Below, piece by piece: positions 4,139-6,210 of a DNA stretch of 7,753 bases. This stretch comes from an uncultured Eubacteriales bacterium. GTDB taxonomy: Bacteria > Bacillota > Clostridia > Oscillospirales > Acutalibacteraceae. The DNA lies in the NCBI GenBank assembly GCA_934718145.1, contig CAKUZC010000040.1:1-7753 (forward strand). Reading direction: 5' to 3'. The position numbers and the translations under genes are program-made. Position 1 is the stretch's first letter, and the number at the start of each line of letters is the position of its first letter. Under the pieces are notes generated by a model. The model was not told the DNA's origin and ran no database searches. It saw only the letters and a list, made by a program, of their open reading frames with translations.

Positions 4139-5143
4139 TTGAAAGGGAATATGTTCAAAAAAATTGCTTTTTTATCTGCTTTACTTTTACTTGGTTCAGG
4201 TTCGGTGGCAAACGTAGCTAATGCAGCAGATGTCGACGTGAATCAAAAATCTTTTCAAGATGAAATTTCAAAAAAATATTATGTAAGAGATTTCTTTGAA
4301 TTGTCTATAGCGGTTAATAAGGCTCAAGATGGCGATGAAATAGTTTTGAAGAATGATATATCTCTTGAAAACAAGATAGTGATTAAGTCATCCATATGTT
4401 TAAACCTAGATGACCATTCTATTTTTGTTAAGAGTGATAAAGCCGGTATCGTTATTGGAGACAAAAAGTTTGATCATCTTGAGAATTATACAATAAAACA
4501 CCCTGGAGAGTACAGGTGGGAACCAACAGAAAAAACTGTATTTATTCCGTCTAGAAATGAAATAGATTCTAATGGGGGGCCTGTTTTTATACCTGCTAAG
4601 ACAGTAAAAGTTATAAAAAATAAACGTGTATGGTATCCAGAGAGAAATGAAACGTGCACAAGAGAAGTGTACACTTACAGAGACGATATAGCTGTAATGA
4701 TGAAAAACGGAAGAGTGTTGAAATCTAAAGGTCAAGATGGAAGAGACGGCATAGAGGATTCTGAAGATAGCTATAACGGAGAAGACGGTAAGACGCCAAA
4801 TGCACCGGTTGAAGTTCTTTCAGGTACGCTCAGACTGAACGGTATGAGATTAAGAGGTGGAAACGGTGGAGACGGCGGAAGAGGTGGATATCAACGCCTT
4901 GTTCACTTTATATTCGGCGGTGGAGACGCAGGAAAAGGCGGAGACGGTGCCAAAGGTGGATACGCTTTGTATATTCATAGAAAAGGTAGATGTTCGGTTG
5001 TTTTAGATAAGTATACCGATTTGAAAGCGGGTAAATCCGGTAGAGGGGGAAAAGCCGGAGAAGTAAACCCAGGCTATTGGTTGTATTCAGGTTGTGAAGC
5101 TAAAGACGGAAAGAACGGGGAAGAATCTCCTGCTTGTAACTAG
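4139..5143 (+). CDS. Exported glycine-rich protein, probable beta-helix
   Basis: I cannot assign a function. The 334-aa product has a clear Sec signal peptide: basic start, hydrophobic core at about 9-21, and a likely signal peptidase I site A27-N28-A29. Residues 55-110 (A-V-N-K-A-Q-D-G-D-E-I-V-L-K-N-D-I then N-K-I-V-I-K-S-S-I-C-L-N-L-D-D-H-S-I) follow the pattern seen in right-handed parallel beta-helix surface proteins. A middle part repeats V-F-I-P at 134-137 and 149-152. From about 198 on it is glycine-rich: a collagen-like G-x-x-G stretch (198-219) and three glycine blocks (239-250, 260-274, 298-312), each ending in Gly-Tyr and a hydrophobic strand. Five cysteines (87, 173, 285, 319, 333) could form disulfides. 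No LPxTG motif, lipobox or C-terminal membrane anchor is present, so it is probably released or held to the wall non-covalently. It is monocistronic, with its own promoter and terminator. Confidence 0.7.
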   Translation: MKGNMFKKIAFLSALLLLGSGSVANVANAADVDVNQKSFQDEISKKYYVRDFFELSIAVNKAQDGDEIVLKNDISLENKIVIKSSICLNLDDHSIFVKSDKAGIVIGDKKFDHLENYTIKHPGEYRWEPTEKTVFIPSRNEIDSNGGPVFIPAKTVKVIKNKRVWYPERNETCTREVYTYRDDIAVMMKNGRVLKSKGQDGRDGIEDSEDSYNGEDGKTPNAPVEVLSGTLRLNGMRLRGGNGGDGGRGGYQRLVHFIFGGGDAGKGGDGAKGGYALYIHRKGRCSVVLDKYTDLKAGKSGRGGKAGEVNPGYWLYSGCEAKDGKNGEESPACN

Positions 5144-5151
5144 TTGTTTTT

Positions 5152-5175
5152 AAAGAGCCTTTAGGCTCTTTTTTT
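5152..5175 (+). terminator. Intrinsic terminator after the exported-protein gene
   Basis: AAAGAGCC (5152-5159) pairs perfectly with GGCTCTTT (5164-5171) around a TTTA loop, followed by a T run to 5175. It begins nine bases after the stop codon and closes this unit. Confidence 0.92.
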
Positions 5176-5239: not shown

Positions 5240-5257
5240 ATATTTTTTAAAAAATAT
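5240..5257. repeat. 18-bp perfect AT palindrome upstream of the phase-variable-type promoter
   Basis: The sequence ATATTTTTTAAAAAATAT is a perfect palindrome made of a T6 and an A6 tract. Its downstream end is 13 bases before the -35 box at 5271 and it covers roughly -63 to -46 relative to the predicted start of transcription. That is where an UP element contacted by RNA polymerase alpha subunits would lie; an operator or intrinsically bent DNA is the alternative. In DNA this AT-rich a palindrome of this kind can also arise by chance. Confidence 0.4.
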
Positions 5258-5270
5258 CACAAAAAAACAC

Positions 5271-5296
5271 TTGACAAATATATATATATATATAAT
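5271..5296 (+). promoter_or_regulatory. Promoter with (TA)8 spacer, possibly phase-variable
   Basis: The -35 box is a perfect TTGACA (5271-5276) and the -10 box a perfect TATAAT (5291-5296), but only 14 bp separate them. The spacer is AA followed by an alternating TA run (5279-5294) that continues into the -10 box. At the normal 16-18 bp spacing there is no good -10 alternative. Gain of one or two TA units would give 16 or 18 bp, so slippage could switch the promoter from weak to strong. It drives the two small paralogs. The predicted transcript start is near 5303. Confidence 0.7.
5279..5294. repeat. (TA)8 dinucleotide repeat
   Basis: Sixteen bases of uninterrupted alternating TA lie inside the spacer of the promoter at 5271-5296. 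Dinucleotide runs of this length are prone to slipped-strand mispairing, and its position in a promoter spacer makes the length functionally important. Confidence 0.9.
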
Positions 5297-5303
5297 GTAT
5301 ATC

Positions 5304-5319
5304 AATAGCGAAAACAGAA
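5304..5319 (+). repeat. Left arm of 16-bp inverted repeat around the paralog pair
   Basis: AATAGCGAAAACAGAA is the exact reverse complement of 6152-6167. The arm begins at the predicted first transcribed base, in the leader of the two-gene unit. It ends seven bases before the Shine-Dalgarno sequence. Confidence 0.9.
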
Positions 5320-5326
5320 AAAATTA

Positions 5327-5332
5327 AGGAGG
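5327..5332 (+). promoter_or_regulatory. Ribosome binding site of first small paralog
   Basis: AGGAGG is placed eight bases before the ATG. The 20 bases from here to the second codon (AGGAGGTAAAAATTATGGCA) are repeated exactly at 5711-5730 before the second paralog, so the whole initiation region was duplicated with the gene. Confidence 0.85.
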
Positions 5333-5340
5333 TAAAAATT

Positions 5341-5700
5341 ATGGCAATATCTTCAACTATTAAAATTAAAGTAACTAAATACGCAAAAGAACTTGGCGAC
5401 CCAAACAAGTGTTCTTTGATTAAAACTGAGGAAAAAGGACAGCGTGATAAAATAGTATGTTATTTTTTTCCTAAACTAGGCCAAGTAAAAGATGAAAAGG
5501 AAAAAAAAGAGATGGAAGATGATTTAAAAGAATTAATCAAAGGTAAAAAAGTAGATAAAAAAAATGTAGCATATAGCATGTATGTCGATTCAAGTCTACT
5601 TAATAAGGAAATGTATGTGTGGTACGAGTATTATCGTACCGCTAAAGATGGACCTATATATTCTGAAGAACTTAAGAATCAATATGCAAAATTAAAATAG
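5341..5700 (+). CDS. Small protein of unknown function, tandem paralog A
   Basis: I do not recognise this 119-aa, lysine-rich, probably cytoplasmic protein: it has no signal peptide, no membrane segment and no known catalytic motif. The ATG is set by a strong AGGAGG. Visible parts are the N-terminal K-V-T-K-Y-A (10-15), a strand-like I-V-C-Y-F-F-P-K (38-45), a highly charged helix (about 49-67), a K-K-V-D-K-K-N-V-A-Y-S-M-Y-V segment (69-82) and an aromatic-rich C-terminal part with Y92, W94, Y95, Y97 and Y98. The next gene encodes a divergent paralog sharing K-V-T-K-Y-A, Y-x-F-P-K and the K-V-x-K segment in the same order. The gene is first in a two-gene unit driven by the (TA)8 promoter, with one arm of a 16-bp inverted repeat in its leader. 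The context suggests an accessory, variably expressed function, but gives no biochemical role. Confidence 0.85.
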   Translation: MAISSTIKIKVTKYAKELGDPNKCSLIKTEEKGQRDKIVCYFFPKLGQVKDEKEKKEMEDDLKELIKGKKVDKKNVAYSMYVDSSLLNKEMYVWYEYYRTAKDGPIYSEELKNQYAKLK

Positions 5701-5710
5701 TTAAAAAATG

Positions 5711-5716
5711 AGGAGG
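5711..5716 (+). promoter_or_regulatory. Ribosome binding site of second small paralog
   Basis: AGGAGG lies eight bases before the ATG at 5725 and is part of the 20-base initiation region duplicated from the first gene. Confidence 0.85.
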
Positions 5717-5724
5717 TAAAAATT

Positions 5725-6126
5725 ATGGCAGGTAAAGCGAATCAAAAAATGAAAGTAACTAAATACGCAGAAAAACTTAACCCAAAAGATTGTTGTTATG
5801 TTAGGATGAATAAGGCGGTAGAAGGTGAATATAAGGTCCTATATTATATTTTCCCTAAACCGGATAAAATTAAAAAAGAAATGATAGAAGAAGCAATAAA
5901 AGATTTAGAATGTTTGACCGCGGGAACAAAGGTACCTAAGAATCATATAGCATTTGACTTTGTTGTCTGTTATTCTACAGTATATACACCAGATCAACAA
6001 AAGTGGATAAATAATTCTAAAAAGCATATCGTTGTCGATTTAGATGAAGAGGGTTATTTGAAAGAGTATAAATTTTCTGATGTGATTGAAAAAGAAAATA
6101 TTGCGAAAGAATATAAAATGAGTTAG
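5725..6126 (+). CDS. Small protein of unknown function, tandem paralog B
   Basis: This 133-aa protein is a divergent copy of the one encoded 24 bases upstream. Shared landmarks are K-V-T-K-Y-A (10-15), Y-I-F-P-K (41-45), a charged helix (about 49-63) and T-K-V-P-K-N-H-I-A-F-D-F-V-V (68-81, equivalent to 69-82 of the first). The DNA for the K-V-T-K-Y-A segment is identical in both genes over 18 bases (5368-5385 and 5752-5769), while most of the rest differs. After residue 90 the two proteins no longer align: this one continues with an acidic stretch (105-112) and a charged tail, and has four cysteines (23, 24, 63, 82). It has no signal peptide or membrane segment and I recognise no family. Co-expression of two unlike copies would fit a heteromer or a functionally split pair, but this is inference. 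Confidence 0.85.
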   Translation: MAGKANQKMKVTKYAEKLNPKDCCYVRMNKAVEGEYKVLYYIFPKPDKIKKEMIEEAIKDLECLTAGTKVPKNHIAFDFVVCYSTVYTPDQQKWINNSKKHIVVDLDEEGYLKEYKFSDVIEKENIAKEYKMS

Positions 6127-6151
6127 GGTGAATCAAAATAAAATTATGTAA

Positions 6152-6167
6152 TTCTGTTTTCGCTATT
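6152..6167 (-). repeat. Right arm of 16-bp inverted repeat around the paralog pair
   Basis: TTCTGTTTTCGCTATT is the exact reverse complement of 5304-5319. It lies 25 bases after the second paralog's stop and eight bases before the terminator stem. With its partner it brackets both genes. No target-site duplication is evident outside the arms and no recombinase or transposase lies between them. Confidence 0.9.
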
Positions 6168-6175
6168 TTAAATTT

Positions 6176-6210
6176 TTGCATGCAGGTATATGTTCTGTGT
6201 GCAATTTTTT
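6176..6210 (+). terminator. Intrinsic terminator of the two-paralog unit
   Basis: TTGCATGCAGG (6176-6186) pairs with TCTGTGTGCAA (6194-6204) through eight Watson-Crick and three G-U pairs around a seven-base loop, followed by six T residues (6205-6210). The wobble pairs mean it works as RNA on the + strand only. It ends four bases before the smpB -35 box. Confidence 0.75.

What the first reader, a model, noticed from the sequence alone, without database searches (positions are those of the whole stretch)
5271..5296. Possible slippage-controlled promoter: perfect -35 and -10 boxes held 14 bp apart by a (TA)8 run
The sequence shows TTGACA and TATAAT, both perfect, separated by AA plus an alternating TA run that reads into the -10 box. 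Fourteen base pairs is too short for efficient sigma-70 type promoters, while one or two more TA units would give 16 or 18 bp. A known precedent is the Haemophilus influenzae hif fimbrial promoter, where TA copy number in the spacer sets expression. If the analogy holds, this assembled copy is the weak or OFF state of a phase-variable switch for the two small paralogs.
Basis: partly seen in the sequence, partly recalled or inferred. Interest (0 to 1): 0.78.

Follow-up and report, generated by a model that had tools for sequence, protein, structure and literature searches.

The report
TA-repeat promoter switch in uncultured Clostridia
Two small sister genes in a bacterium akin to uncultured Clostridia sit behind a promoter whose two recognition boxes are spaced by a TA repeat, and related genomes hold at least 18 promoters of this build with spacers of 11 to 21 bases, so repeat slippage likely turns such genes on and off.

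Summary
No genome or strain of the window's species is held, but 11 genomes of a related genus give the key evidence: 18 TTGACA-(TA)n-TATAAT sites in 7 of 11 genomes, reversed-pattern control 0. Ordinary TTGACA...TATAAT pairs in three of them have 16-18 bp in 104 of 142 rows; the TA class in 3 of 18 (Fisher P 5e-6). Orthologous promoters differ in TA number: 15 against 13 bp with 285 of 300 upstream bases identical, 13 against 17, 21 against 13. Long TA tracts lie between promoter boxes in 13 of 29 cases, 0.9% expected. I conclude: a slippage-variable promoter of a genus-wide set, its 14-bp state predicted weak. Variation at this very locus, switching within a population and expression are untested. 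Unexpected: a perfect 16-bp inverted repeat links the 5' leader with the 3' end of the cassette.

The parts
5152..5171 (+). terminator-like hairpin that closes the preceding gene and isolates the cassette
   Evidence: 8 pairs, T tail; consensus match only
5261..5270 (+). A-run plus CAC just before the -35 box (AAAAAAACAC), shared with relatives such as L160 and L164
   Evidence: by eye
5271..5276 (+). -35 box TTGACA, perfect
5279..5294 (+). (TA)8 run that sets the 14-bp spacer and overlaps the -10 box
5291..5296 (+). -10 box TATAAT, perfect
5304..5319 (+). left arm of a perfect 16-bp inverted repeat, in the 5' leader, at or next to the predicted transcript start
5327..5332 (+). AGGAGG ribosome-binding site of the first gene
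5341..5700 (+). first orphan gene, 119 aa
   Evidence: no Pfam or NCBIfam family
5725..6126 (+). second orphan gene, 133 aa, paralog of the first
   Evidence: no Pfam or NCBIfam family
6152..6167 (+). right arm of the 16-bp inverted repeat, after the last stop codon
6176..6204 (+). terminator-like hairpin after the cassette
   Evidence: 11 pairs, T tail; consensus match only

Best explanation
A perfect -35 box and a perfect -10 box stand 14 bp apart around a (TA)8 run in front of two small paralogous genes, and gain or loss of TA units by replication slippage would likely change this spacing in 2-bp steps and so turn the pair up or down. Shown: the boxes, the repeat, the gene pair, terminator-like hairpins on both sides, and a genus-wide class of promoters of the same build whose TA number differs between orthologs. 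Inferred: that the housekeeping RNA polymerase uses these boxes; that (TA)8 with 14 bp is a weak or OFF state while (TA)9 with 16 bp and (TA)10 with 18 bp would be active; that slippage is frequent enough to give mixed populations. The locus would then be one of a set of contingency promoters, which in relatives stand before other short, mostly unrelated proteins, some with double-glycine leaders.
For: Promoter class: 18 distinct sites (23 rows) in 7 of 11 genus genomes, reversed control 0 in all 11; the window's promoter aligns with L164 at 97% over 37 nt and with L160 at 92.5% over 40 nt. Spacing: 3 of 18 TA sites at 16-18 bp against 104 of 142 other rows (P 4.9e-6). As an outside yardstick, 19 of 21 viral-contig matches to TTGACAAATATATAT-N0-12-TATAAT have 16-18 bp by their coordinates. 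Changing TA number at orthologous sites: L161/L168, 94% over 1024 nt, 15 against 13 bp; L156/L157, 73% over 632 nt, 13 against 17; L153/L177, 82% over 332 nt, 21 against 13; L217, L218, L231, 13, 21 and 23 bp. Position: 13 of 29 long TA tracts lie between a TTGACA-like box and TATAAT, null 0.9%. No other + strand site of 16-18 bp spacing is listed between 5172 and 5340.
Against: No length variation has been seen at the window's own locus and no expression data exist. Orthologs compared are different species, so slow drift would look the same. The contig break inside a tract in G071 shows one base difference, not a length difference. Sixteen of the 29 long TA tracts are not in this position, and in G185 four lie just upstream of TTGACA. 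In the outside-genus set one YicC-like gene has a 23-bp reading (name recalled). TA runs of 19-21 bp could offer an inner TATA as -10 box, so long spacers need not be OFF.
Confidence: 0.68

Rival explanations
1. The TA run is a passive, mutable tract: the 14-bp copy is a weak or decayed promoter, and TA numbers drift between species without selected switching.
For: Most TA sites of the genus are off the 16-18 bp optimum (15 of 18); one site (L166) is followed by an early stop in the reading with the best ribosome-binding site, by eye.
Against: The boxes of 18 sites are perfect by the search itself, but the class also shares upstream A-runs and leader layout and recurs in 7 of 11 genomes; TA tracts are strongly concentrated between promoter boxes, which plain drift does not predict; the two window genes keep intact frames.
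Confidence: 0.2
2. The 16-bp inverted repeat marks an invertible or mobile cassette: flipping 5304-6167 would detach both genes from the promoter, so the switch is inversion and the TA run is incidental.
For: Perfect 16-bp arms exactly flank the two genes, one arm just after the -10 box; shuffled leaders reached at most 13 of 60 tries.
Against: No recombinase among the nine window genes scanned; the arm sequence (first 14 nt) occurs in none of 234 fetched loci; the arm sits where 11 of 21 relatives have a leader hairpin, which fits RNA pairing better.
Confidence: 0.08
3. The repeat lies in a bidirectional promoter as in hif: on the minus strand TTGATA-17-TATATT (5305-5277) shares the TA run, so TA number tunes a minus-strand RNA.
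For: One search lists this minus-strand pair with 10 of 12 matches.
Against: No convincing minus-strand gene lies upstream; the minus-strand ORF of 53 aa at 5247-5408 spans the promoter itself. By eye most relatives have GTTTAC, GTACAC or similar where the window has TATCAA, so the reverse box is not shared.
Confidence: 0.04

Closest known systems
Haemophilus influenzae hifA/hifB fimbrial promoter
   Same: TA dinucleotide run in the spacer between -10 and -35, unit number alters the spacing; (TA)9-11 reported (PMC2651432 and PMC3899988, passages).
   Different: hif is one bidirectional promoter of divergent fimbrial genes in a cultured pathogen; here a one-way promoter of two orphan paralogs, (TA)8, with at least 18 sites of the same build in relatives and often a leader hairpin.
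Neisseria meningitidis porA promoter
   Same: A repeat in the -10/-35 spacer sets transcript level (PMC3899988, passages).
   Different: Poly-G homopolymer with one-base steps; here TA with two-base steps.
Mycoplasma hyorhinis vlp lipoprotein genes
   Same: Phase-variable surface proteins with promoter repeats (named in PMC3899988, passages; several genes in one small genome is recalled).
   Different: Homopolymer A run and related lipoproteins (recalled); here TA runs before mostly unrelated proteins.

Membership tests
promoter-spacer repeat phase variation | tandem repeat between recognisable -35 and -10 boxes | tested here: met
promoter-spacer repeat phase variation | repeat number differs at the same locus between relatives | tested here: inconclusive
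   met at orthologous sites of related species; the window's own locus has no ortholog among the 11 genomes
promoter-spacer repeat phase variation | mixed repeat numbers within one population | not testable with these tools
   no reads; the G071 contig break showed equal length
promoter-spacer repeat phase variation | expression follows repeat number | not testable with these tools
   needs reporter fusions or RNA data
hif promoter | bidirectional promoter of divergent genes | tested here: not met
   neighbouring genes all run on the + strand; a reverse TTGATA-17-TATATT exists but leads to no convincing gene
hif promoter | drives fimbrial genes | tested here: not met
   no Pfam or NCBIfam family in either protein
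invertible DNA switch | inverted repeats flanking the switched segment | tested here: met
   perfect 16-bp arms 5304-5319 and 6152-6167
invertible DNA switch | site-specific recombinase encoded nearby | tested here: not met
   none among the nine window genes scanned; the rest of the genome is not held
invertible DNA switch | both orientations observed | not testable with these tools
   no second copy or reads of this locus

The most novel reading that the evidence does not exclude
A small-genome lineage of uncultured Clostridia runs a genome-wide set of TA-slippage promoters, several per genome, that independently switch a changing repertoire of orphan, secretion-leader and effector-like proteins, giving each cell its own combination; the window's pair is one such switch, caught in its weak state, with an RNA whose two ends pair.
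Probability: 0.5. Interest if true: 0.78.

Novelty: new variant of a known kind. Interest (0 to 1): 0.66.

Why it matters
Slippage in a promoter spacer is known from loci of a few cultured pathogens. Here the same build recurs many times across a genus of uncultured Clostridia, before mostly unrelated short genes, which would make it a general contingency system in a group without genetics. It is directly testable: TA numbers can be counted in metagenome reads without culturing anything. It also gives a search key, TTGACA-(TA)n-TATAAT, that may mark interaction genes among orphans.

Tried and rejected
Rejected: chance. Rejected: another ordinary promoter, since no other + strand site of 16-18 bp spacing is listed between 5172 and 5340. 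Structure of the first protein: mean pLDDT 60, too poor for a fold search. The 21 viral-contig matches were used for their spacers only. I first read the G071 contig break (C11 end, C30 start) as two tract lengths; the count shows 17 bp in both and one base difference, so it is not used as evidence of length change.

Rows dropped: one search uses the 146 listed rows of G259, G304 and G305 (142 after setting apart 4 TA rows); the four listed G071 rows were left out because that listing is cut. One search uses 29 of 30 distinct tracts (G305:C69 not fetched). Searches have no leader for L157 and L161, where the contig ends at the tract, and L190 was not found by my search string. The reversed control is nearly the same pattern and says nothing.

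Literature: (listings; one search failed). No listing showed TA-spacer promoters in Clostridia. Of three papers I saw passages (PMC2651432, PMC3899988, PMC9820224). This is not proof that none is in print.

Full report
OBSERVATION. The two boxes with a free 14-bp spacer and up to one mismatch would occur 0.14 times per window by chance; with the TA run and up to three mismatches, 0 of 200 shuffles match. Upstream lies a terminator-like hairpin (5152-5171) after the preceding gene; downstream come AGGAGG and two paralogous ORFs (33% over 88 positions, E 6e-10), then another terminator-like hairpin (6176-6204). The promoter scan, which takes spacers of 16-18 bp only, lists no + strand candidate between 5172 and 5340. 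Two other candidates of the window, before the 334-aa gene (4079) and before smpB (6215), have 17 bp.

PLACE. The window carries cvpA-like, pgsA-like, clpC-like and nrdR genes, a glycine-rich gene with a signal-like N-terminus (by eye), the cassette, smpB, a LURP-one-related gene and tmRNA (gene names are my reading of the Pfam hits). NrdR is 69-78% identical to those of four Clostridia metagenome genomes, and all four share the cvpA-pgsA-clp-nrdR order. The window's own genome is not held. The two proteins are near-orphans: the second has no relative in the genome collection, neither has one in viral contigs, the second none in phages or plasmids. Among 5.8 billion proteins the second finds its own cluster (5 members, 7 contigs) and one 83%-identical relative; the first finds one 99%-identical cluster.

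A GENUS-WIDE PROMOTER CLASS. Searching the 11 genus genomes for TTGACA-N0-5-(AT)5-N0-22-AAT gave 23 rows at 18 distinct sites in 7 genomes; the reversed control gave 0 in all 11. A common form reads aaaaaacac-TTGACA-A-(TA)n-TAAT (by eye); the window's promoter aligns with L164 at 97% over 37 nt and with L160 at 92.5% over 40 nt. Spacers are 11,11,11,12,13,13,13,14,15,15,15,15,17,17,17,19,20,21. The other TTGACA...TATAAT rows of three genus genomes have 16-18 bp in 104 of 142 cases and 14 bp in 2; the TA class has 16-18 in 3 of 18 (Fisher P 4.9e-6). Five further sites with one changed box position (L172, L173, L176, L177, L189) bring the genus count to 23. In viral contigs 19 of 21 matches to TTGACAAATATATAT-N0-12-TATAAT have 16-18 bp by their coordinates and two have 12, so a TA-rich spacer does not by itself bring odd spacing.

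TA NUMBER CHANGES AT ORTHOLOGOUS SITES. L161 (G259) and L168 (G071) are 94% identical over 1024 nt and 285 of the 300 bases just upstream agree, yet the spacers are 15 and 13 bp. L156 and L157: 73% over 632 nt, 13 and 17 bp. L153 and L177: 82% over 332 nt, 21 and 13, the second with TTGATA. Outside the genus three genomes share a promoter and gene start with 13, 21 and 23 bp (L217, L218, L231). In G307 two sites 1.8 kb apart have 17 and 13 bp (L160, L164). These are comparisons between species or loci, not within one population.

TA TRACTS SIT IN PROMOTERS. A pattern for (TA)7 without promoter boxes gave 58 rows, 30 distinct places by my count (it requires a non-A at both ends, so it is a sample). 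Of the 29 that I had in hand, 13 lie between a TTGACA-like box (up to one mismatch) and TATAAT; random AT-rich flanks give 0.9% (P about 1e-19). Sixteen do not. In G185 four tracts lie just upstream of TTGACA or close to it (L182-L184, L186). In 300 family genomes a stricter pattern hits 14 genomes; 16 sites in 12 of them are outside the genus, so the class is thinner there. Among these, genes that look like greA and pyrC (names recalled) have 17 bp, a yicC-like one reads 23, and the others range from 12 to 27.

WHAT STANDS DOWNSTREAM. The 21 relative proteins called are mostly short and unrelated to each other; four pairs among them match at E 0.01 or better besides the window's own two paralogs, one of those being a weak window-L171 match. 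By eye six of the 21 (L150, L153, L160, L164, L168, L177) have a double-glycine leader. Library support is thin: Nif11-like leader in L160 (E 2.8e-5) and L177 (E 0.002), both below the curated cut-off; bacteriocin models for L150, L153 and L164 only at E 0.007 to 0.2. Single cases resemble a calpain-family peptidase (L149, E 2e-18), a phosphotransferase stretch (L177, E 4e-6) and, weakly, ankyrin repeats (L171, E 0.001). The window's two proteins have no such leader and no family.

LEADER STRUCTURE. In 11 of 21 relative leaders the first 45 nt after the -10 box fold with a z-score at or below -1.8, as a hairpin close to the 5' end. The window's leader has no local hairpin, but 5304-5319 is perfectly complementary over 16 nt to 6152-6167, after the last stop and before the terminator; 60 shuffles of the leader reached at most 13, and the longest such match of the 21 relatives was 11, though one shuffled leader (L155) reached 15. 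The arm lies where relatives have their hairpin, so the two ends of the transcript likely pair and shield the RNA (inferred). An invertible segment is a less likely reading.

MECHANISM AND LIMITS. Sigma-70-type promoters prefer about 17 bp (recalled, and in line). With AA before the run the window can reach 14, 16 or 18 bp; relatives with a single A reach 13, 15, 17. One more TA unit would move the window to 16 bp. I commit to a slippage-variable promoter with a predicted weak present state. Not shown: length variation at this locus, mixing within a population, expression. The nearest precedent is the hif promoter of H. influenzae, (TA)9-11 (PMC2651432 and PMC3899988, passages).

Noticed in passing
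5304-5319 and 6152-6167: Perfect 16-bp inverted repeat that flanks the two-gene cassette, joining the 5' leader and the 3' end of the expected transcript; no match to its first 14 nt in 234 fetched loci.
   Followed up: partly
L182, L183, L184, L186 (G185): In this genus member long TA runs lie just upstream of a TTGAC-type box instead of between the boxes, perhaps another way for repeats to tune a promoter.
   Followed up: no
4139-5143; L002, L003, L004, L126: The 334-aa glycine-rich gene has homologs, sometimes two per locus, in the nrdR-smpB interval of relatives, beside other genes such as a glutamate-dehydrogenase-like one (name recalled): a variable interval.
   Followed up: partly
5277-5305, minus strand: Reverse promoter-like pair TTGATA-17-TATATT shares the TA run.
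   Followed up: partly
L157 end and L205 start (G071); L161 (G259:C52 start): Three contig ends lie at TA-spacer promoters; the two G071 ends agree in tract length and differ by one base.
   Followed up: partly
L217, L218, L231: A small protein starting MRII(I/L)DTDK has a TA-spacer promoter with 13, 21 and 23 bp in three family genomes outside the genus.
   Followed up: partly
L149: A TA-spacer promoter (12 bp) stands before a gene with a calpain-family peptidase domain, E 2e-18.
   Followed up: no
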